In this document: piece after piece, positions 3,599-36,097 of the stretch | Layout: each line of letters opens with the position of its first letter | Position numbering within the stretch: the first letter of the stretch is position 1 | NCBI RefSeq assembly: GCF_020866845.1 | Contig: NZ_CP086594.1 | Span: forward strand, 2,294,001-2,358,000 | Reading direction: 5' to 3' | Length of the DNA stretch: 64,000 nucleotides | Source: Sphingomonas radiodurans | GTDB taxonomy: Bacteria; Pseudomonadota; Alphaproteobacteria; Sphingomonadales; Sphingomonadaceae | Made by a program: the position numbers and the translations under genes | Notes under the pieces: model-generated | What the model saw: only the letters and a program-made list of their open reading frames with translations | What the model was told of the DNA's origin: nothing | The model's database searches: none

Positions 3599-4054
3599 AG
3601 AACCCTTCCGCACCGATTCGCGGCCGCAAAACGCACCGCCACAGCCCTCAATATCAGCGCTGAAAATAAATGTAGTTATGCATAATGCGCATGGCTCTGC
3701 GTTAGGTGGCTCAAAGGTTAGCCATGCAGTAAATGCAGAACAGCGGAAACCCCGCAGCCATTTACAAAGCAAGGTCGCGTCGTACCTAGGTGATGTCTAG
3801 CACGGATGGCGCCGATTACAGTTGTTCGAAGCGTTGTCTGGGTTGGCCTAACACAGGCTAGATCAGCGAATTGAGGCTCGCTGATCAGCCGCTCTTTGAA
3901 ACTGTTAAGAAGCGATATCGCGTACTACGCGGTTGCATTTCGGGCGATCGTGGAATCGATCGTCGGTTGCGACGGCGTGTGCGCAAGCCCGCGGCGATTC
4001 CGTCGTGGGTGAAGTGTCGACCCGATGGGTCGGCCTCAACCTCTGAGGACAGAT
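3599..4054. other. Intergenic stretch with small dyads, 456 bp
   Basis: No convincing gene. Two short perfect inverted repeats are visible: GATCAGCG/CGCTGATC at 3861-3886 (10-base loop) and CGACCC/GGGTCG at 4018-4032, just before the ribosome binding site of the VapE-like gene. Either could be an operator or a small hairpin. The region 3655-3740 is AT-richer than the surroundings and lies upstream of the LysR-domain gene, so it probably holds that promoter. Confidence 0.4.
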
Positions 4055-5059
4055 ATGAATACAAATCGAAAGGTCTTGGACTTCCCGGACCCGCCCGCAC
4101 CGCGTTCGGACCGGCCGCCGGCGACCATCGCGAACGTCGACTGCCTTCTAAAGCACGCGCGCATCACGGTGCGGTACAATGAAGTTTCGAAGCGCGACGA
4201 AATCGAAATTCCCGGACGGGCGGGATCGCGTGATAATGTGGACAATGTGACGCTCACCCATATCGTCAGTCTCGCGGCTGAGTATCACATGCCCACAGGA
4301 AACGTGCCGGGGTTCGTCGAGGCCATTGCAAACCGCGACGCCTATAACCCAGTACGAGACTGGATCATCAGTCGCCCCTGGGACGGGATCGACCGGCTCT
4401 CCCTCGTGTATGCAACCGTGGTCGCACAGGAAGGATACCCGGAGAACCTAAAGGCAACCCTTCTGCGGAAATGGCTCCGCAGCATAGCAGCCGCTGCAAC
4501 GCGAGACAGCTTTCGCAGCCGGGGCGTGCTGACCCTTCAGGGGCCGCAGGGAATAGGTAAGTCGAGCTGGATCAAGTCTTTGATCTCCGACACGGAGCTC
4601 GCCGACGCGGTGATCAAGCTCGGCCATCACATGGATGCCTCGAACAAAGATTCAGTGATCGGGGCGATCGGGTACGCCATCGTGGAGCTTGGCGAGCTCG
4701 ATAGTTCGTTCAAAAAGGATCTCGCCCGATTGAAGGGCTTCCTGACGGACGACACTGACCGTGTCCGGCGGCCATACGACCGGCGGGAATCAAGCTATCC
4801 CCGCCGCACCGTATTCGCCGCCACGGTAAACGAGCATCAGTTCCTCCAGGACCCGACCGGCAACACACGGTTCTGGACCATACCGGTCGCGAGGCTCGAC
4901 TGGCAGCACGGTATCGACATGCAACAGGTGTTCGCTCAGCTTGCGACCGAGGTCGAAGCGGGTGCGCCCTGGTGGCTGCCCGTCGCTATGATCGGCGTGG
5001 CGGTGTCGTCTGTGCGGGCGATTACCAACGCACTGCGGCTGCGGCGGATCGCCCTTTAG
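4055..5059 (+). CDS. VapE-like phage/plasmid helicase, C-terminus replaced
   Basis: The start is ATG 4055 after CTGAGGACAG. The 334-residue protein carries the virulence-associated E (VapE) P-loop domain: Walker A GPQGIGKSSW at about residues 165-174, an acidic AIVELGELD (Walker B region), and the family's late signature FAATVNEHQFLQDPTGNTRF and FWTIP. VapE proteins are primase/helicase-like ATPases of prophages and satellite elements. The domain stops at GAPWWLP, where family members normally continue for ~100 residues. The last ~25 residues (AMIGVAVSSVRAITNALRLR...) instead match the C-terminal signature of heavy-metal P-type ATPases ('AMALSSVSVVxNALRLRR'). It is therefore a truncated gene fused to a relic of a metal ATPase. 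Confidence 0.72.
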   Translation: MNTNRKVLDFPDPPAPRSDRPPATIANVDCLLKHARITVRYNEVSKRDEIEIPGRAGSRDNVDNVTLTHIVSLAAEYHMPTGNVPGFVEAIANRDAYNPVRDWIISRPWDGIDRLSLVYATVVAQEGYPENLKATLLRKWLRSIAAAATRDSFRSRGVLTLQGPQGIGKSSWIKSLISDTELADAVIKLGHHMDASNKDSVIGAIGYAIVELGELDSSFKKDLARLKGFLTDDTDRVRRPYDRRESSYPRRTVFAATVNEHQFLQDPTGNTRFWTIPVARLDWQHGIDMQQVFAQLATEVEAGAPWWLPVAMIGVAVSSVRAITNALRLRRIAL

Positions 5060-14834: not shown

Positions 14835-15270
14835 CGATATCGCCGAGCAGCATTAACGCTCGTTTCAAGTGGCGTCAGGGTGGTCGGTGCGCGACGGCGG
14901 CTCGTAGGCGGGAAGGACTTAAATCGAATGCATCAGGCTCGCGGCACGCAGATTTTCCAAAAATCTGAGTGCCCATCTTTGTCCCCTATGGGGCCGCTTA
15001 CAGGACTCGAACCTGTGACCCCCGCATTACGAATTCCTGTCTTGCACCCTTAATAGTCGTTATAATTCAGATGGTTGTGAGGGTCTGACGTTCATCCCTA
15101 GGTTCAACCCACGCCCTTCCCAGCTGTATGGAATATCCCATCGATACAGTTGCCTGCTGAAAGGCCCTTCGCCGGGAGAAGACGCAAAACTCGACCTGCG
15201 CTAGACCCGGAACTCCGGTAGGGGTACGAGATCCGTAGGGCAGCAATCGTCCTCGTTGGGGAACGTCCAA
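14835..15270. other. Intergenic island junction, 436 bp
   Basis: There is no protein gene. It contains a small hairpin CAGATTTT/AAAAATCTG at 14949-14967, a CCCC-TAT-GGGG palindrome at 14983-14993, and a partial tRNA sequence (separate entry). The stretch 15036-15250 is lower in GC than the efflux cluster and leads into the nuclease gene, whose promoter it probably holds. Confidence 0.6.
14989..15035 (-). other. 3' fragment of tRNA-Thr(CGU), attachment-site scar
   Basis: Read on the minus strand, the sequence contains ATTCGTAATGCGG (anticodon loop with CGT plus the 3' anticodon stem), a five-base variable loop, a perfect T-arm (ACAGG TTCGAGT CCTGT), the 3' acceptor strand AAGCGGC and CCA. The 5' half of a tRNA is absent: bases upstream cannot pair with TGCGG, and there is no D-arm. 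Similarity begins at the anticodon loop, where many tyrosine integrases cross over. It therefore looks like an att duplicate left by an integrating element rather than a functional tRNA. The discriminator base is C, unusual for tRNA-Thr. Confidence 0.75.
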
Positions 15271-16389
15271 ATGCCCAGCCTGTATAGCCGGCTCTTTACC
15301 TATCGCGAGCGGCGCGACCGAAGCCCCTTGGAGGACTTTTTAACCGAGGGGCTCGCCGACCTGCTGAACCGGTTTCCGGAGCCTCTCGCTCGAAGCGTTG
15401 TCTCCTTTTTGCTTTCGAACAATGCTGAGGCAATCGCGAACGTTGGAAAGCGATGGCGCTGCGGCGCATCGGTTATTTGGACGACCCAAAAAATCATCGA
15501 CGGCGGACGGATTCTAGATCTCTTGCTGGAGATTGATGGGATGCCCATCATGGTAGTCGAGAACAAGATTGGTGCTGGATTCCAGCACCACCAGCCCGAT
15601 CCCGAACAAGCAGATGGTTCAGGCGTCCAGCATCAACTGGCCACCTACGGACACTGGCTCGCACGAGAGACGGATGCAGAGTGGGGAGGAGCGCTAGTTC
15701 TCCTCACTCACTGGACCCCCGCCCCCGCCGACTTCGCACGCGGGGCCGAAGTTTTTGGGTGCAGATACCGCAGTACGATCCGATGGGCAGAGCTCTCGCG
15801 GTGGTTGAAGCGGTCCTCGGAGAGCGCTGAGCATGGAGAATCGGACTGGGCGCGCCTGTCGGCGGAGATGAACTCTTTTCTGAAGGAGCAAAAGATGGAT
15901 AGCGAGTTGGCGACCGGGCAAGACCTAGCTGCTTTACGGATTTACGTAGCGTCAGCTGACAGGGTTCGAAATTCGGTAGAGAGCATCTGGGAAGGTGCAA
16001 AGTCTTTCTGGCGGCCGATATGTCAAAATGCAGCTGTTCCTATTGAGGTGTCAACGGCCTATGGCTGCGTCTGGAAGTACCGTTATTTAGCTCGATCGGA
16101 CCTGAGAAGTAGCTACTTGGCTGTCGGCATTCGATACCCAGACATTGGAAGCTACTCGTCCGATTTTTCTACGGATGGTGGACCATATTTTTTCGTCGAG
16201 ATTGGTTCTGACGATGATGGCTCTGCTGTAAACGACTTAGCCTTACCCGACGGTTGGCTCGTGCGGGATGACATGCGAATGGCAACTCTTCCATTACGTG
16301 AACTGTCGTCGCACGCTGAGCTACAGGTCGCTGAGGCAGAAAAATGGGTCCGCAGTCGCTTGGGTGAGGTAGTAAGTGCACTCACGTAA
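15271..16389 (+). CDS. PD-(D/E)XK nuclease-family protein
   Basis: The protein has 372 residues from ATG 15271. The N-terminal ~130 residues have the PDDEXK_4-type layout: Glu21 in SPLEDFLTEGLADLL, Asp83 in GGRILDLLLE, the core VVENKI with Glu97 and Lys99, then Gln122 and Tyr126 in HQLATYGHWL. This set is the usual metal-dependent nuclease site. Residues ~190-372 form a C-terminal domain I cannot name, with WEGAKSFW and FFVEIGSD. Codon use is less GC-rich than in the surrounding core genes, suggesting transfer. It stands alone between an attachment scar and a recombinase fragment, a typical place for a cargo defence gene; that role is inference. Confidence 0.8.
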   Translation: MPSLYSRLFTYRERRDRSPLEDFLTEGLADLLNRFPEPLARSVVSFLLSNNAEAIANVGKRWRCGASVIWTTQKIIDGGRILDLLLEIDGMPIMVVENKIGAGFQHHQPDPEQADGSGVQHQLATYGHWLARETDAEWGGALVLLTHWTPAPADFARGAEVFGCRYRSTIRWAELSRWLKRSSESAEHGESDWARLSAEMNSFLKEQKMDSELATGQDLAALRIYVASADRVRNSVESIWEGAKSFWRPICQNAAVPIEVSTAYGCVWKYRYLARSDLRSSYLAVGIRYPDIGSYSSDFSTDGGPYFFVEIGSDDDGSAVNDLALPDGWLVRDDMRMATLPLRELSSHAELQVAEAEKWVRSRLGEVVSALT

Positions 16390-16463
16390 AAAAATATAGG
16401 TCGCAAGGTGCCCTCCGGTGACCTGGGGGTCACTGGAGAGCTAGCTTGGTCTGCTTTGCAGTT

Positions 16464-17177
16464 TTAAGCGGCAGCAGCACTGATTTTTAGGTTAGCCGCT
16501 CCTGCCTCTACAATCGCCATAAGACGGCTGTTCGAGACATGAGAATAGCGCGCAGTGCTTGCGTGTGACTGATGCCCTAAAACCTTCCCGAGGCTATGAA
16601 GATCGAAACCTGCGTCAATAGCCGATGACGCGAAAGTATGTCTTAAATCGTGGATCCTGGTGTCTGGCAGCTTGGCTTCTGCTCGCGCGGTCTGCCAAGC
16701 ATGCTTAATGGTCGTAAGATGCTTGGTTGGATCGGACGTGTTTGGGAACAGGTATTTACCGCCGTCGACCTTGGGTATGAGTTCTATCATCTCGATCGCT
16801 GCGGCGCTTAGGAGCCTCGAACTAACGACCGGTTTCGACGACGGTCGCATGAACGATGCGAGGGCCAACGCCCTCATGAAGCCGCCCGCCGTTCCTTGCG
16901 AAAGCCGTCCCAGCTCGGACCCACGTGGGTTCTCAAGCCAAAGCCCCTTCGCCTCAGCCGCCGCCGTTTCCCTTGTGGAAGTGCCATAAAGAAGGTGGTG
17001 CACCACTTTCTTTATAGCACTTCCAGCAGGAAACCGGGGCTGAGGCGAAAAGGCTTCGGCTTTGAAGCGCACGTAAGTCCTGGCTGGAATAGCTTTCAGT
17101 AAGGAGGCGGGCGGTTTCATGAATGCGTCGGCCCTGGCATCGATCATGCACGGAGAGTTAGGCGTACCAAGGCGCAA
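16464..17177 (-). pseudogene. Tyrosine recombinase, catalytic C-terminal fragment
   Basis: The open frame has 237 codons, but only the last ~125 residues are recognisable. They include LSAAAIEMI, a YLFP strand, RIHDLRHTFASSAIDAG (box II His/Arg), LGKVLGHQ and the nucleophile Tyr in TARYSHVS. The upstream core-binding region and the first catalytic Arg are missing. From base 16847 upward the frame runs through an inverted-repeat element (separate entry) and gives unrelated sequence. I read this as an integrase whose 5' part was replaced or interrupted, so it is probably inactive. Its location next to a tRNA-Thr scar fits an integrase that targeted that tRNA. Confidence 0.75.
16847..17152. repeat. 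Large imperfect inverted repeat, ~306 bp
   Basis: Two arms of ~154 bp meet head to head at 17000/17001, with GTGGTG|CACCAC at the centre and no spacer. Reading outward from the centre, both arms carry similar blocks in the same order: TTCTTTAT, GCACTTCC, GGCTGAGGCGAA, GGCTT, CACGT, GGCGGGCGG followed by TTCATGA, GCGT.GGCCCT, GCATCG.TCATGC. By eye the identity is roughly three quarters, with small gaps. The arms differ enough to be old. The structure could fold into a long cruciform or hairpin. It resembles a MITE or a palindromic insertion and lies within the recombinase locus. Confidence 0.75.
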
Positions 17178-30618: not shown

Positions 30619-31434
30619 TCAGCGCATCGTCACCGGCCAGCGATCAATCGACATTGTACCGATGCCGGACACCGGCTCAACGCCCAGTGCGATCCCGGAC
30701 ATCCACTCGTTACCACTAATGCGCCCCTTCTGCTGCAGCCAGCGTAGCACCGGCAGCATATCGAGCGTTCCGGTCATCGGCAGATCCTGCGGTTGCTCCG
30801 GCGCGATCATGCAGAATTTCTCGCCAATCCGCACCATCCAGCGCCGGCCCTGTTCATCGACGTACCGCCCGACCGGCGTTGCCGAGTCAAAATAGGCCCT
30901 AGTGTTAGGCGGCATATGGAAGAACCAACCGATCTCGATTACCTTCGCATGCACATTGGTGGTGCTCGATCGCAGGTAGAATTCGGTCAACACATTGCCA
31001 TCGCCGAACCGGTTGGACAGGCGAAAACTGTAGCTCTGACGCAGTTCTTTGAGGTCGCGCACGCGGATCGGTGCAACCGGCTTTTCCGGCACACCGCCAT
31101 CATAATTGCCGTACATCACGGCGTTATAGCCCCATACACCAAGGCCGAAGTGCGGCACCAGCGGCGGCCAGCGCCAATGCACGACGGATTTGTTCGGGAA
31201 TTCGCTAAGGTTCAACACCACGGCGTCCGCATGCGGTGCCCATGGCTTCAAGATCGTAACCGTCTCGCCCGCCCACGGCATGGCGAAGGCGAAGAACCGG
31301 CCTTTGGTGAAGGGCGTCTTGGATGGGAGGACGATCTGGTCGGAGCCTGCTGACGGCCGGGTAGCCCAGATCGTCAAGGCCAGCCCAAGGAACACGACGA
31401 AGATGGCAATCGTCGCGATGCGCAACCACTTCAC
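30619..31434 (-). CDS. GH12-like beta-glucanase-fold protein, membrane-anchored
   Basis: The protein has 271 residues with one N-terminal membrane helix (~6-25), so it is exported and probably anchored. The rest follows glycoside hydrolase family 12 order: GVWGYNAVMYGNYDGG (cleft strand), RQSYSFRLSN, KVIEIGWFF with Glu167 where GH12 has the nucleophile, GRRWMVRIGEKFCMIAP, and SGIALGVEPVSGIG with Glu253 where GH12 has the acid/base. GH12 enzymes cut beta-1,4-glucans or xyloglucan. Both catalytic Glu positions appear kept, but the assignment is by eye. It is followed on the same strand's upstream side by an acyltransferase gene, hinting at glycan work. Confidence 0.6.
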   Translation of the reverse strand: MKWLRIATIAIFVVFLGLALTIWATRPSAGSDQIVLPSKTPFTKGRFFAFAMPWAGETVTILKPWAPHADAVVLNLSEFPNKSVVHWRWPPLVPHFGLGVWGYNAVMYGNYDGGVPEKPVAPIRVRDLKELRQSYSFRLSNRFGDGNVLTEFYLRSSTTNVHAKVIEIGWFFHMPPNTRAYFDSATPVGRYVDEQGRRWMVRIGEKFCMIAPEQPQDLPMTGTLDMLPVLRWLQQKGRISGNEWMSGIALGVEPVSGIGTMSIDRWPVTMR

Positions 31435-31495
31435 GTTTTAACTCCGGCGCTGCGATGGTGATGCCGTCGATCTGGTAAAATCGCGGGCGGGACGA

Positions 31496-32587
31496 TCAAT
31501 CAACCAGCGGCGGATGATCTGCGGATGCGTTTGCCGGATAGCGTCGCTTGGTCGCTCTGGTCAACAATGCCCGGGCGGCCGAAGTCAGTGGCACCTCACA
31601 GAAATAATAGGCGAATAGCCCAAGTGCGATCGATGCGGCGATGAGCAAGATGGCAATGGGCAGCGCCAAGGCGTCAGCGACGACGATCGGTGTCAATGTT
31701 GCCAGGATCAGCGGATGTACGAGGTAGAGGCTATAGCTGGACTTGCCCAATTGATCGAGAACGCCGATCCGTCGCCGGCTACTTGCGGGCTCGCAGATTA
31801 TCGTGCCCATCACAATAAGGACCGCGAGCGGCGCGAAGAAAATGAATCTGGGCACAGCGGGGTCGAACAGCGCGAGCGCCAACAGCGCAGATACGATCGC
31901 GCCTATACCAAGAAGGCGAGGTGCGCGCATGATGATGCTTCTATAGCGGCCAATCACCATCCCGGCCACGAATTCTAGCGGCATCGGGCTGGTCATGCGG
32001 ACAAGGATGGTGTTGTCCGGCGGCACGACAAGACGCAGGCTTGCGATTAGGATGAACAACGTGGCGATTACGATGATGCGCCGCGTGACTGGCACTCTGA
32101 GAAACGCCGCGAAAACTAGGTAGAAATAGATTTCGTAGTTCAGCGTCCACCCAGGCCCCAAAACCGGACTGATTTCATTTACGCGTGGATTGAAGTGAAA
32201 GATGAAGAACAATGACTTGAGCAGTTCATCGAACGAAGGAAGCAGCTGGCCGCGAACGTAAAGGATGGCGACCATGATCATGGTTGCCATCCAATAGAGC
32301 GGCGCAACCCGGGATAAGCGCGATATCATAAAGCTCTTGGGGTCGACCGGACGCCCCGAGGTGGACACGACCATCACAAAGCCACTGATGACGAAGAAGA
32401 TGTCTACGCCGGAGGCGAGCCAATGCGCCCTGCCGTACTCCGTCACGAAATGCAGATCGTAGCCGACGTGGTACAGCACGATCATGAAGGATGCGACGCC
32501 GCGGAGATACTGAACGGAAATGAACACGCTGTCGTGACAGGTGCTTGGGACGTGGTCGTTAGCGCCAATTCCCCGGCGAAGCGTCAT
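31496..32587 (-). CDS. Acyltransferase 3 family membrane protein
   Basis: The protein has 363 residues; ATG 32587 was chosen because GGAGG precedes it by eight bases. It has about ten membrane helices with family motifs: QYLRGVASFMIVLYHVGYD (catalytic His in the first helix), VDIFFVISGFVM, SRLSRVAPLYW, GPGWTLNYEIYFYLVF and SYSLYLVHPL. Members of this family (OafA/NodX/ExoZ type) O-acylate exopolysaccharide, LPS or other glycans. The closest overall pattern is ExoZ-like. The donor and acceptor are not determinable. The gene lies 61 bp upstream of the GH12-like gene on the minus strand and the two may be co-transcribed. Confidence 0.9.
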   Translation of the reverse strand: MTLRRGIGANDHVPSTCHDSVFISVQYLRGVASFMIVLYHVGYDLHFVTEYGRAHWLASGVDIFFVISGFVMVVSTSGRPVDPKSFMISRLSRVAPLYWMATMIMVAILYVRGQLLPSFDELLKSLFFIFHFNPRVNEISPVLGPGWTLNYEIYFYLVFAAFLRVPVTRRIIVIATLFILIASLRLVVPPDNTILVRMTSPMPLEFVAGMVIGRYRSIIMRAPRLLGIGAIVSALLALALFDPAVPRFIFFAPLAVLIVMGTIICEPASSRRRIGVLDQLGKSSYSLYLVHPLILATLTPIVVADALALPIAILLIAASIALGLFAYYFCEVPLTSAARALLTRATKRRYPANASADHPPLVD

Positions 32588-32833
32588 CCAGGCATCCTCC
32601 AATCGTCGTGCGGACCTGAGCGGCACGATTGTCTCGCCCCGCCGGCCGACATTCGGGCACACTAGCTGGAAAGGCGATCGAGGGCTTAAGGCTTGCGGTG
32701 GCGATTACCTAGGGTGCAATCCGCTCCCGGTCGTGTAGATGAGGATAAGGGTGGTCAATGATCACTCTGACGCTTCAGTACCATCGGCGGCGGCAATGCA
32801 TTGGTCGGAACGTCGCTGCTCAAGGAGTGTAAG

Positions 32834-32965
32834 ATGGCAAAAGGTCAGCAAAAGTCGAGCAAGGAGCTTCGCAAGCCGAAGGCCGAGAAGCCGCCGAAGC
32901 AGAACGCGTCGAACCCGTCGACCAAGGGGACGCCTGCCGAGCAATCGCCGGCACAGCGCAAGTGA
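32834..32965 (+). CDS. 43-residue Lys/Pro-rich small protein
   Basis: A short ORF with an AAGGAGTGTAAG site before ATG 32834. The product (MAKGQQKSSKELRKPKAEKP and so on) is almost entirely Lys, Pro, Ser, Gln and Asn, with no hydrophobic core, so it is disordered and strongly basic. Small proteins starting MAKGQ...SNKE..KPK are common in sphingomonads from general knowledge; their function is unknown. Codon use and the ribosome site support translation. Confidence 0.65.
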   Translation: MAKGQQKSSKELRKPKAEKPPKQNASNPSTKGTPAEQSPAQRK

Positions 32966-32997
32966 AGTCGGTCGTAAGTCCAGGTGGAATTTAAGCT

Positions 32998-33216
32998 ATG
33001 CGGTTTGTTCAAATCGAAATTGCGCCTTCAGGCAAGGCGCTGATTGATATCGACAAGCTTACCCATGCGGTGCCGCAGGAGCAGGGCACGCGGCTGTTCC
33101 TTGGCGCGCAGTATCTCGACGTGCCGCACTCGCTCGACGAACTGGAGAATGTTCTTGCGGGACGCGAGCGGACCAATGCCGGTGAAGGCGGCATGGCGGG
33201 TTTCCACGTGCGCTGA
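32998..33216 (+). CDS. Hypothetical 72-residue protein
   Basis: It starts at ATG 32998, 32 bases after the previous ORF. The product MRFVQIEIAPSGKALIDIDK continues with a mixed alpha/beta pattern and an acidic helix near its end (LDELENVLAGRE). No family recognised. The GC pattern at third positions supports coding. It could share a transcript with the Lys/Pro-rich gene. Confidence 0.55.
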   Translation: MRFVQIEIAPSGKALIDIDKLTHAVPQEQGTRLFLGAQYLDVPHSLDELENVLAGRERTNAGEGGMAGFHVR

Positions 33217-33471
33217 GGCGCGGAATGACCTTTGATACTGTTTAATGTCGTCCGCGGACATTGTTTATCAAGGCTACCGTCGAGCGCGTCAGCGCGTTTG
33301 ACTCAACCTCGCACGCGCAGTTGTGCTGTACAGTTTCAAGCGTTGATTACCTAACAAGTTGCAGTCCGGAATTTTGCCGTTTGCAAGGTAAAAGCATATT
33401 ACCACCGAAACGAATTTAATTCGACTTAGAATCTTCGAGCTGTTATTCGACTTATGCAATTGTAAATTAGA

Positions 33472-33756
33472 GTGACTGTTTCGGGGGGGGGTACGCTTTT
33501 GCTGAAGCCGCTTAAGGGCAAAGGGGCATCGATCGCGCGCGCGCTTGATTTCGGCGCGTCGGACGCGACCGCATTTGTTGACGTTTGCTATCATGCGATC
33601 CTGGGGCGTGCGCCGGATCAAAAGGGTTCGGCAAGCTACGCCGAAATGATCACGAGCGCCCCTGACCGGGAGACGCTGATCGCAGTCGTGCGCTCGATCG
33701 CAATGAGCGAGGAAGCGCGCGACTATCGTGAGCATCACTTGGCTTCACGGCGCTGA
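33472..33756 (+). CDS. DUF4214-like domain protein with G9 tract at start
   Basis: The frame opens at GTG 33472 and crosses nine consecutive G bases (33483-33491). A TTG at 33499, seven bases after the G-run, is an alternative start, with the run acting as a purine-rich ribosome site. The recognisable part (DATAFVDVCYHAILGRAPDQ, then a short helix and IAVVRSIAMSEEARDY) matches the DUF4214 repeat, which in other proteins is attached to exported or glycan-related enzymes. Here it stands alone in ~85 residues. The G-run could slip during replication and change the frame if the GTG is the true start. Confidence 0.55.
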   Translation: MTVSGGGTLLLKPLKGKGASIARALDFGASDATAFVDVCYHAILGRAPDQKGSASYAEMITSAPDRETLIAVVRSIAMSEEARDYREHHLASRR

Positions 33757-33765
33757 CGGCCAGAC

Positions 33766-33864
33766 TTACAGCGTGACGGCGTGAGCCAGAGAAGCCAGCG
33801 ACACAGCCAAGAGCAACCCCAGGTTCAGCCACATCAACTGCTTTGAATTGTCGCTGTCACGCAT
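33766..33864 (-). CDS. Putative 32-residue membrane peptide
   Basis: A short minus-strand ORF, ATG at 33864 and stop at 33766. The product is MRDSDNSKQLMWLNLGLLLA plus 12 residues ending SLAHAVTL: a polar start and one hydrophobic helix. An AGG lies five bases upstream. It is convergent with the DUF4214-like gene, 9 bp apart. No family known; the support is composition and a plausible ribosome site. Confidence 0.35.
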   Translation of the reverse strand: MRDSDNSKQLMWLNLGLLLAVSLASLAHAVTL

Positions 33865-34160
33865 TGCCTGAAATCCCGTTGAACGGGACGGCGCTACTGC
33901 GGACGCAGCGCTGTCGCGACGCACAGTCGCTTAAGAATCGACTAACCGGGCGAAGCCGAAACTTTCGTCTTGCCGCCAGGAAACACGATTTGGCGAACGA
34001 GTCGGGTGTCGGCATTAAAATAGATTGACTAAACAAGAATTCTACTCGCCTTCGAAAATTGATCTCGCGGCCTGATATTCATTGAATATTTAATCCATGT
34101 GGGCGAACCAACGAGCTATTTTCGCTCTACTCTCATGACCAGGCTTGGAGTCGTGGGACT

Positions 34161-34385
34161 ATGGATACGACCGACGATCATACTTATTTTTCACGTCGCG
34201 CAGACCGTGAACTGGACATGGCGCAGCGTGCGACATCGCCCCAGGCGGTGAAGGCGCATTACGCGTTGGCGACCTTCTATCTTGGTCGCGTTCATGGCCT
34301 CCCGGATCGTCACGATCTGAAGGGTTTTCAGTTTCGGGCGGACAGCGGTGGCAACCCGGATGGCATCGCGTCTCACGAACATTGA
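34161..34385 (+). CDS. Hypothetical 74-residue protein
   Basis: It starts at ATG 34161. MDTTDDHTYFSRRADRELDM continues with AQRATSPQAVKAHYALATFYLGRV, two amphipathic helices. Short proteins with a 'YF.RRA..EL.MAQ.A..P.AV..HY.LA' pattern recur in sphingomonads, from general knowledge; their function is unknown. It is preceded by an AT-rich gap, 33865-34160, which has a small CCCGTT/AACGGG dyad near 33882 but no other gene. Confidence 0.6.
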   Translation: MDTTDDHTYFSRRADRELDMAQRATSPQAVKAHYALATFYLGRVHGLPDRHDLKGFQFRADSGGNPDGIASHEH

Positions 34386-34484
34386 CGGTCCGGCGTTTTT
34401 TCCTCGTAGCGTCAGTGGTTTCTTTCGGCACGAAGCCACGCGGCGAACGTTGATGTCGGACAGCACCACGAAACTTTGGAGCCT

Positions 34485-34730
34485 ATGATGTCCGACAAGC
34501 AACCAATGCAGGCGAGTGGAGCGGGCACGCCGCGAGATGGGCCCGAAAGCGATCGTGAGCCCAACGATCAAGACGGCGCATCGCAGGGCGGCGCCTATCC
34601 GAATCCGCACACTGGCAAGAAGGGTGGCCATTTCGACGGCGGCCAAACTGGGCAGGGCTATCATGGGACGGGGCAGCTCGGCGCCCAGAAGACCGGCGAG
34701 CAGCCGAATGCCGGGTCGACTGCGGAGTAG
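34485..34730 (+). CDS. Low-complexity Gly/Gln-rich hypothetical protein
   Basis: The start is ATG 34485 or the adjacent ATG 34488. The ~80 residues are disordered: MSDKQPMQASGAGTPRDGPE, later YPNPHTGKKGGHFDGGQTGQ and GYHGTGQLG. There is no hydrophobic segment and no recognised domain. The composition (Gly, Gln, Asp, His) resembles hydrophilic stress-type proteins; that is inference only. Confidence 0.55.
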   Translation: MMSDKQPMQASGAGTPRDGPESDREPNDQDGASQGGAYPNPHTGKKGGHFDGGQTGQGYHGTGQLGAQKTGEQPNAGSTAE

Positions 34731-34859
34731 CTTGACGGGTACGCGCCGGCCGCGGCCGGCGGCGCTTGAAGGATACGACACATCGGTATAGCTCGATCAC
34801 GAGGCGCAAGGCACGCCATCGCAACCGAAACACCTGTTTCGCGATCGAGAGGAAAGTCG

Positions 34860-35495
34860 ATGCTCGTCGTCCACCATTTAGGACTATCGCAGTCAGAACG
34901 TATCGTCTGGTTGTGCGAAGAACTTGAGCTCGAATACGAACTTAAGCGATATGACCGCCGGGCCGACAATCGCCTCGCCCCGGACAAATACAAGTCTTTG
35001 CATCCGATGGGTGTCGCGCCGGTAATCACGGTGGACGACTTCGTGCTCGGCGAAAGCGGCGCGATCTGCGAATTCATCAACAGCCGCTTCGGGTCGGGGC
35101 GGCTGGCGCCAGCGCCATCGGATCCCGATTACCCGGAGCATCTCTTCTGGTTTCATTGGTCGAACGCGACCTACATGGCGACGAAGATGATGGGGATGGT
35201 GCTAGGATTGGGTGGTAGCGATCCGGGGCGCGTGCCGTTCGTCGCGGCGCGGGCGGATCGCAGCAGTGAGATGATGGAGCAGCGGCTGGGCACGGTGCCG
35301 TTCTTTGGTGGCCAGCATCTGACACTCGCCGATATCATGATGGTATACACACTCACGACATCGCGGGCGTTCGGCGGCGCGCCACTGACGGGCATGCCGA
35401 ATGTTCAGGCTTACCTGCGACGCATTGCCGAGCGGGCAGCTTACCAGCGCGCGATGGCCAAAGCCGAGCCGGGCATGACGCCAATGATCGACTGA
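34860..35495 (+). CDS. Glutathione S-transferase family protein
   Basis: A 211-residue two-domain protein. The thioredoxin-like N-terminal half (residues 1-80) begins MLVVHHLGLSQSERIVWLCE, with Ser10 or Ser12 as candidate glutathione-activating residue, and contains GVAPVITVDD and the ESGAICEFI segment that binds the gamma-glutamyl group. The helical C-terminal half ends with LTLADIMMVYTL and YLRRIAERAAYQRAM. It conjugates or reduces with glutathione in the cytosol; the natural substrate is unknown. It stands alone. Confidence 0.92.
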   Translation: MLVVHHLGLSQSERIVWLCEELELEYELKRYDRRADNRLAPDKYKSLHPMGVAPVITVDDFVLGESGAICEFINSRFGSGRLAPAPSDPDYPEHLFWFHWSNATYMATKMMGMVLGLGGSDPGRVPFVAARADRSSEMMEQRLGTVPFFGGQHLTLADIMMVYTLTTSRAFGGAPLTGMPNVQAYLRRIAERAAYQRAMAKAEPGMTPMID

Positions 35496-35552
35496 TTCCG
35501 GCCACGCGATGCGTGTGTCCTCAGCCAACGAGGGCAGCGGCTGCTACGCGCG

Positions 35553-35771
35553 TCAGATCGTCGATAACGGATGAATGCTATCATGGCGGCTAGTCGAATA
35601 AGCCGTCATCACACTTTCAACCCGGCTTTCCACGCAATCCAAAGCATGGGCCAGTCGGGCAGAAATCAAGAGCTCCTCGGAGAGGTCCGATAAATCAATA
35701 ATCTGCTTCAACTGATCACGGATAATACGCAGCGTTGCGAGCTTTTGATCATGCTGATTAATCGCGTCCAC
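35553..35771 (-). CDS. Hypothetical 72-residue helical protein
   Basis: The protein starts at ATG 35771. MDAINQHDQKLATLRIIRDQ continues as two predicted amphipathic helices (LKQIIDLSDLSEELLISARL; HALDCVESRVESVMTAY). No family recognised. The composition is protein-like on this strand, and lower GC than neighbours suggests an accessory gene. Confidence 0.5.
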   Translation of the reverse strand: MDAINQHDQKLATLRIIRDQLKQIIDLSDLSEELLISARLAHALDCVESRVESVMTAYSTSRHDSIHPLSTI

Positions 35772-36097
35772 GTCGTGATCATGCGGCGTTGGGCAGTCGA
35801 AATCATTTACCTGTGTTAGCCGCAGTTTTGATGTATTGGGGTTGCGGTGCTCTTACCATGACATGTGCGACGACTAGCACAGGTTATAGCCGCCAGGGGA
35901 CGGCGCCTTACACCCGACGCTGGGCGGCCCCCGTACAAGATCCCGCGAATGGGGGAACTGCTTTGATCGAAAGCGCTGGCGTATCGCCGAAGACGGTACG
36001 ACAATCGTTAGCCGATAGCGGCAATGTAAGCCGGTCGGCACGTGTTTCTTCATTGCTCAGGGCGGCCGCGGGTCGGCCGTAGGAAAAGGGATTTGCA
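35772..36097. other. Intergenic region before an orphan receiver, 326 bp
   Basis: A 97-codon frame on the plus strand (35789-36082) covers most of it, but its composition is not protein-like and it has no ribosome site. I see no RNA gene. The promoter of the receiver gene at 36098 should lie here. Confidence 0.4.

What the first reader, a model, noticed from the sequence alone, without database searches (positions are those of the whole stretch)
16847..17152. Near-perfectly centred 306-bp inverted repeat in the recombinase locus
Two ~154-bp arms face each other with zero spacer, and similarity blocks persist to both ends (CATCG.TCATGC). Zero-spacer palindromes of this size are unstable in bacteria unless the arms diverge, as here. 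It seems to have replaced the integrase 5' region and could be a MITE-like element or a duplicated gene segment joined head to head.
Basis: seen in the sequence. Interest (0 to 1): 0.62.

Follow-up and report, generated by a model that had tools for sequence, protein, structure and literature searches.

The report
Two island end-sites fused head-to-head
The large palindrome is a genomic scar: two copies of the end-piece of mobile DNA islands that insert into a threonine tRNA gene lie back to back, so it is mostly an ordinary by-product of repeated island insertion and decay rather than a new mobile element.

Summary
The inverted repeat is real (fold z -16.8; arms 77% identical). It is not a MITE. 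Each arm is one complete ~155-bp unit found singly elsewhere in this genome and in 54 of 295 genus genomes. In 30 of 50 units read, the unit sits directly behind the 3' half of tRNA-Thr(CGT). It is best read as the P' arm (left attachment-site arm) of tyrosine-integrase islands that target this tRNA. The unit co-occurs with the integrase whose C-terminus lies beside the palindrome (18 of 23 against 23 of 178 genomes, p 1.8e-10). P' units and the opposite P arm share a paired motif, TGGG-N7-TGGG (31 of 50 and 12 of 13; shuffles 0.56 and 0.04). The window holds an inverted, internally deleted island remnant at 14989-17002 (P arm and tRNA core, integrase C-terminus, left arm), with a second, decayed arm joined head to head at the tRNA 3' end (GGTGGT|GCACCAC). 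The arms share no derived changes beyond the centre base, so a recent inverted duplication is unlikely. How the two ends were joined is unresolved. Known kind of locus, unusual scar.

The parts
16847..17002 (-). Left arm (winL): one complete P'-arm unit, near the family consensus, reading leftwards from the tRNA 3' end; paired motif TGGG-N7-TGGG kept at 16909-16923 (-)
   Evidence: unit model match 135.9 bits; 85% to single copies in own genome; motif list
16999..17149 (+). Right arm (winR): second P'-arm unit, more diverged, paired motif lost
   Evidence: unit model match 103.2 bits; 29 of 132 consensus columns changed against 7 for winL; motif absent
16995..17006 (.). Palindrome centre GTGGTGCACCAC: the last bases (GCACCA) of two tRNA-Thr 3' ends back to back
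   Evidence: sequence compared with tRNA-Thr(CGT) ...TAAGCGGCACCA followed by the unit
16800..16838 (-). Island left-end DNA continuing past the arm, shared with a relative whose unit follows an intact tRNA-Thr
   Evidence: 90% over 40 nt to L030/L088, which are probably one assembly
16464..16811 (-). C-terminal fragment of the tyrosine integrase; N-terminal arm-binding and core-binding parts missing
   Evidence: PF00589 profile 85-170 of 172; tblastn to intact own integrase residues 372-475, 58%
16464..17177 (-). 237-codon open frame running from the palindrome into the integrase fragment; probably a fortuitous fusion
   Evidence: the ORF listing; another copy of the unit is also open in one frame (ORF 2285090-2285566)
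15256..16389 (+). 377-aa ORF of unknown family between integrase fragment and P arm; restriction-like nuclease is my guess from its text, no library match
   Evidence: no Pfam, PADLOC or PHROG match
15108..15203 (-). P arm of the same island family: TAGCGCAGGTCGAGTTT at 15203-15187 and TGGG-N7-TGGG at 15122-15108
   Evidence: block at 169-171 nt from the core in 13 of 18 internal cores, window included; motif at 89-90 nt in 12 of 13
14989..15034 (-). Displaced 3' half of tRNA-Thr(CGT) (45 of 46 nt): attR core of the inverted island remnant
   Evidence: sequence
14937..14986 (-). Sequence just past the core; by eye resembles (13 nt) the end of large-serine-recombinase elements at the same tRNA, and 84% over 50 nt to G418:C9

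Best explanation
The palindrome is a recombination scar inside a tRNA-Thr(CGT) island-insertion hotspot. Each arm is a P' arm: the ~155 bp that a family of tyrosine-integrase islands brings next to the 3' end of tRNA-Thr when it integrates. An intact island reads tRNA-Thr / P' arm / cargo / integrase / P arm / displaced tRNA 3' half. In the window one such island lies inverted and gutted: left arm at 16847-17002, then an internal deletion that joins the island's left end to the last third of its integrase (around 16800-16811), then a P arm and tRNA core at 14989-15203. A second, decayed P' arm in the normal orientation abuts the first at the tRNA 3' end. Shown: identity of the arms, their tRNA context, the P arm and core, and the truncated integrase. 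Inferred: that the unit binds the integrase (arm-type sites), that the remnant was inverted in place, and that the head-to-head join is an illegitimate event at the shared GCACCA end.
For: Single units stand elsewhere in the genome, six of six in the + orientation; one directly follows intact tRNA-Thr(CGT) at 2249 kb and one follows a 45-nt tRNA 3' half at 2285 kb. 30 of 50 distinct units have the tRNA 3' half at their start (4 duplicate fragments dropped). Unit and close integrase co-occur in 18 of 23 genomes against 23 of 178 (Fisher p 1.8e-10), and where both are on one contig they lie 3-20 kb apart on the same strand. Tandem islands each have their own unit (G326, G470). P arm block at fixed distance in 13 of 18 internal cores. 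TGGG-N7-TGGG in 31 of 50 P' units and 12 of 13 P arms, shuffled means 0.56 and 0.04; motif kept in 26 of 30 units with full core against 5 of 20 with decayed core (p 1.6e-5). The intact own integrase has an Arm-DNA-bind_3 domain. winL and winR share 1 derived letter (the axis base), 1.5 expected by chance.
Against: The P and P' arms are not clearly inverted repeats of each other: 1 of 500 shuffles reached the observed score in the own island, but 50, 276, 40 and 450 of 500 in the other four comparisons. 20 of 50 units have truncated or decayed cores, so tRNA linkage is not universal. Five of the 23 genomes with the close integrase lack a detected unit. The remnant's orientation is opposite to the intact tRNA, which needs an inversion whose reciprocal junction was not found. 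The arm tree is poorly resolved (5 of 28 inner branches supported). No binding or recombination was tested.
Confidence: 0.82

Rival explanations
1. The palindrome arose in place by an inverted duplication of one arm (replication template switch at the short palindrome GTGCAC); winR then decayed as a long palindrome is selected against.
For: winL-winR is winR's best identity (77% by tree alignment; 0.79 against 0.70-0.73 to others); zero spacer and a 2-6 nt palindromic join fit a fold-back.
Against: winR carries 1 of 7 winL-specific letters (the axis base) but shares 6 and 5 derived letters with two copies in G351; both arms end at the natural end of the unit (model position 157), which a fold-back copy would hit only by chance.
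Confidence: 0.12
2. A large serine recombinase that uses the same tRNA 3' end joined the two ends: its crossover dinucleotide would be the palindromic GC of GCGGC/ACCA, so sites can pair in either orientation and give head-to-head junctions.
For: Large serine recombinase genes run into the tRNA-Thr 3' end in G470, G501 and G271; G418:C9 has a similar head-to-head join at the same spot; window 14937-14986 resembles the end of such an element.
Against: Own genome has no close copy of this recombinase (G000 0 matches); lengths of the retained tRNA ends at truncated units vary (6 to 13 nt, counted by eye), not a fixed crossover; G418:C9 is a 5.3-kb contig of a fragmented assembly (88% complete, 640 contigs); orientation loss with palindromic dinucleotides is recalled, not looked up.
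Confidence: 0.08
3. A MITE-like or REPIN-like mobile palindrome inserted into the integrase gene.
For: Multi-copy unit with a hairpin-forming end (GCAT...ATGC) and copies away from the tRNA (1913, 2946 and 2948 kb).
Against: No second head-to-head copy in the matches listed for 295 genus genomes; no target duplication seen; left flank is island DNA rather than integrase gene; no integrase 5' part on the other side in the ORF list.
Confidence: 0.03

Closest known systems
tRNA/tmRNA-gene genomic islands with tyrosine integrases (as catalogued by Islander, PMC4383910; abstract and passages seen)
   Same: Island restores the tRNA and leaves a displaced 3' fragment starting in the anticodon loop; integrase in the island; tandem arrays occur (own 2249-2285 kb, G326, G470).
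   Different: The window's remnant has an inverted fragment, no intact integrase and its left arm fused to another left arm.
ssrA genomic islands of Dehalococcoides with serine recombinase DsiB (PMC3146451; passages seen)
   Same: Many tandem islands and direct repeats at one RNA gene; attachment repeat embedded in the recombinase gene, as in the serine-recombinase elements at this tRNA-Thr.
   Different: There the integrase is a serine recombinase; here the arm units go with a tyrosine integrase, and a serine type shares the site.
Cis-mobilizable elements / accretion (term seen in PMC3146451 passages and in the search listing)
   Same: Arrays of attachment-site arms without their own integrase, 0.5-2.4 kb apart (G446, G336, own 2285/2287 kb).
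   Different: Most such arms here have decayed cores and motifs, so they look dead; mobilization untested.
Lambda-type attP with arm-type integrase sites (recalled)
   Same: Two arms around a core, short paired motif about one helical turn apart in both arms, integrase with an arm-binding domain.
   Different: Motif found only by comparison; binding untested; inverted-repeat test mostly negative.
pPDL2, an integrative mobilizable element of Sphingobium fuliginis (PMC3516476; abstract and passages seen)
   Same: Sphingomonad element with integrase and attP matching a tRNA 3' end.
   Different: Targets tRNA-Ser; no link to this unit was seen.

Membership tests
tRNA-gene genomic island (tyrosine integrase) | Displaced tRNA 3' fragment marking the island end | tested here: met
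   45 of 46 nt at 14989-15034
tRNA-gene genomic island (tyrosine integrase) | Fragment in the same orientation as the intact tRNA gene | tested here: not met
   window core is on -, intact tRNA-Thr at 2249 kb on +; so the window holds a rearranged remnant, not an intact island
tRNA-gene genomic island (tyrosine integrase) | Integrase gene inside | tested here: inconclusive
   C-terminal fragment only in the window; complete genes in relatives and own island at 2249-2285 kb
Arm-type attP architecture | Same short motif repeated in P and P' arms at fixed positions | tested here: met
   TGGG-N7-TGGG, 31 of 50 P' units and 12 of 13 P arms
Arm-type attP architecture | Integrase binds these sites | not testable with these tools
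   needs footprinting; only the Arm-DNA-bind_3 domain was found
MITE / REPIN | Many full-length copies of the palindrome | tested here: not met
   one head-to-head pair among listed matches in 295 genomes; at most 10 candidates per genome were scored
MITE / REPIN | Target-site duplication | tested here: not met
   by eye; left flank is island DNA
Cis-mobilizable element | Working attL/attR without own integrase | not testable with these tools
   arrays seen, activity unknown

The most novel reading that the evidence does not exclude
Two unrelated recombinases, an arm-binding tyrosine integrase (crossover at the anticodon loop) and a large serine recombinase (crossover at the acceptor end, palindromic GC), share one tRNA-Thr gene. 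The serine enzyme's lack of orientation preference repeatedly cuts the tyrosine islands' attachment sites and rejoins their P' arms head to head, so this palindrome would be a product of site-specific, not illegitimate, recombination.
Probability: 0.07. Interest if true: 0.5.

Novelty: new member of a known kind. Interest (0 to 1): 0.3.

Why it matters
It explains a striking large palindrome without invoking a new mobile element. It also gives a marker (a 155-bp arm with TGGG-N7-TGGG) for a family of tRNA-Thr(CGT) islands found in about a fifth of the sampled genus genomes (54 of 295). Such a marker lets one find island ends, including dead ones far from the tRNA, that integrase searches miss. 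If the serine-recombinase reading held, it would show how two recombinase classes at one target scramble attachment sites.

Tried and rejected
MITE/REPIN reading: rejected (no further palindromic copies listed, no target duplication, island DNA on the flank). RNA gene reading: Rfam matches to the palindrome were all below gathering score and to animal RNAs. The consensus fold of 8 units had a positive (unfavourable) covariation term and one pair changed on both sides, so no support for a conserved RNA. Native tRNA 3' flank: considered after L030, where the unit follows tRNA-Thr. Disfavoured because most of the 24 tRNA-Thr loci lack the unit, tandem islands each have their own, and unit and integrase co-occur. 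Phage or plasmid origin: no blastn match in either collection. Inverted arms between P and P': mostly negative. Identifying what follows winR on the right: no match in 17 other unit-bearing genomes (18 searched with the own genome). An NYN-domain gene next to the unit in L030 was tested as a fixed neighbour; the own genome has only a distant one elsewhere. PADLOC and PHROG gave nothing for ORF 15256-16389. Literature: searches listed no paper on this unit or on tRNA-Thr islands of sphingomonads; that is the only basis for calling it unreported.

Full report
What was checked. The inverted repeat at 16847-17152 is real. Three inverted blocks tile it, the whole matches its own reverse complement at 77% over 303 nt, and as one strand it folds at -217.5 kcal/mol against -116.2 +/- 6.0 for shuffles (z -16.8). 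The genome is one complete 3.68-Mb contig, and the arms differ by about 23%, so an assembly fold-back is unlikely.

The arms are a repeat unit. A search of the own genome with the palindrome found single arms at 1913, 2249, 2285, 2287 and 2948 kb; a model added a partial copy at 2947 kb. All six lie on + in the sense tRNA-end to far end; the left arm of the palindrome is the only copy on -. The copy at 2249 kb begins right after an intact tRNA-Thr(CGT). The copy at 2285 kb begins after a perfect 45-nt 3' half of that tRNA, starting in the anticodon loop. The centre of the palindrome, GGTGGTGCACCAC, is therefore two tRNA 3' ends (GCACCA) back to back.

Distribution. A sequence-only model from 8 units (R1) found the unit in 54 of 295 genus genomes at E <= 0.01 (at most 10 candidates per genome were scored) and in 12 of 397 family genomes, 10 of 96 genera, at E <= 0.001. 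Exact-pattern search of the genome-contig collection gave 4 loci, of which only a Sphingomonas MAG (L030) has the tRNA context. No match in phage or plasmid collections. Of 54 rows extracted from loci held at that point, 4 were fragments of copies already counted. Of the other 50, 30 have the tRNA 3' half at their start and 20 have a truncated or decayed one.

Link to the integrase. The ORF beside the palindrome ends in the C-terminal half of a phage-integrase domain. Its close family (E <= 2.6e-26) is in 23 of 201 genus genomes. Of these 23, 18 have the unit, against 23 of the other 178 (p 1.8e-10). Where both lie on one contig they are 3-20 kb apart on the same strand. G326 and G470 carry tandem islands, each starting with core plus unit. 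The intact own integrase at 2268280-2269725 has an Arm-DNA-bind_3 domain and a full integrase domain.

The other arm. Upstream of 13 of 18 internal tRNA cores, the window's included, a conserved block begins 169-171 nt before the core. This is the right-hand end (P arm) of the islands. Both arms carry TGGG-N7-TGGG: 31 of 50 P' units and 12 of 13 P arms, the latter at 89-90 nt from the core. Shuffled sequences gave means of 0.56 and 0.04, and spacings of 3-5 or 10-15 gave nearly none (6, 8 and 9 gave 9, 14 and 8 units). Units with a full core keep the motif in 26 of 30 cases, those with a decayed core in 5 of 20 (p 1.6e-5; 25 of 28 against 3 of 12 for units whose match spans model positions 4-97). 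This is what one expects of arm-type integrase sites that decay once the attachment site is dead. Against this, P and P' are not clearly inverted repeats of each other: 1 of 500 shuffles for the own island but 50, 276, 40 and 450 of 500 for the other four comparisons, the last of which paired a core's upstream with the unit that follows it.

What lies in the window. On the - strand, from the palindrome leftwards: left arm (17002-16847); 39 bp of island left-end DNA shared with L030/L088 (16838-16800); integrase C-terminus (16811-16464); a 377-aa ORF on the other strand with no match in Pfam, PADLOC or PHROGs; P arm (15203-15108); tRNA core (15034-14989). This is one island, inverted relative to the tRNA gene and deleted between its left end and the last third of its integrase. 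The right arm (16999-17149) is a second left end, in normal orientation, followed by DNA with no match in 17 other unit-bearing genomes.

Origin of the two arms. In 132 columns with a clear consensus, winL differs at 7 and winR at 29. They share one derived letter, the axis base, with 1.5 expected by chance, while winR shares 6 and 5 with two copies of G351. Both end at the natural unit end. The simplest reading is two old, separate units fused at the tRNA end, but a tree of 31 units has only 5 of 28 supported inner branches, so an ancient duplication is not excluded.

How they were joined. Unknown. The join is at the last bases of the tRNA, not at the anticodon-loop crossover of these islands, so it is not a normal product of their integrase. 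Illegitimate joining at the short palindrome is the default. A second enzyme is at hand in the genus: large serine recombinases whose genes run into the tRNA-Thr 3' end (matches in 74 of 295 genomes at E <= 1e-20, not all shown to be at this tRNA), and G418:C9 shows a comparable head-to-head join at the same place. The own genome has none of these genes, retained tRNA ends vary in length, and the G418 contig is short and from a fragmented assembly. I give this 7-8%.

Compared with what is known. Islander describes tRNA islands, their displaced fragments, tandem arrays, and crossovers at the anticodon loop or near the T/acceptor junction (PMC4383910, passages). Dehalococcoides ssrA islands show the same accretion at one RNA gene, with the repeat inside a serine recombinase gene (PMC3146451, passages). 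The locus fits these kinds; the head-to-head arms are an odd scar. Searches listed nothing on this unit.

Noticed in passing
genome 2249168-2285423 (L013-L015): A 36-kb island with intact tyrosine integrase between tRNA-Thr(CGT) and a perfect 45-nt tRNA 3' half; it also holds a serine recombinase (2283179-2284780) next to the P arm, with homologues beside attachment cores in G501 and G351.
   Followed up: partly
L120 9026-10389 (G446), L121 1766-3519 (G336): Arrays of three P'-arm units 0.5-1 kb apart, two of three and three of three with decayed tRNA cores; looks like repeated insertion and decay or small cassettes.
   Followed up: partly
L151 around 4040-4105 (G418:C9): Sequence resembling window 14937-14986 joined head to head with GGCACCAC plus a P'-arm unit, at the same tRNA end as the window palindrome.
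   Followed up: partly
G470:C8:265901-266797, G501:C7, G271:C180:71099-71995: Large serine recombinase genes whose 3' end runs into the tRNA-Thr 3' end; the G470 copy appears interrupted by a transposase gene.
   Followed up: partly
genome 1913503-1913658 and 2946930-2947065: Two solitary units far from the tRNA share about 60 bp of following sequence, so a piece of island end was copied or moved with them.
   Followed up: no
window 31001-36000: A second low-GC stretch (0.56-0.60 against about 0.66) that may be another island.
   Followed up: no
the eight units of alignment A2: The far end of the unit is a small conserved stem GCAT-N5-ATGC in 7 of 8 units, function unknown.
   Followed up: no
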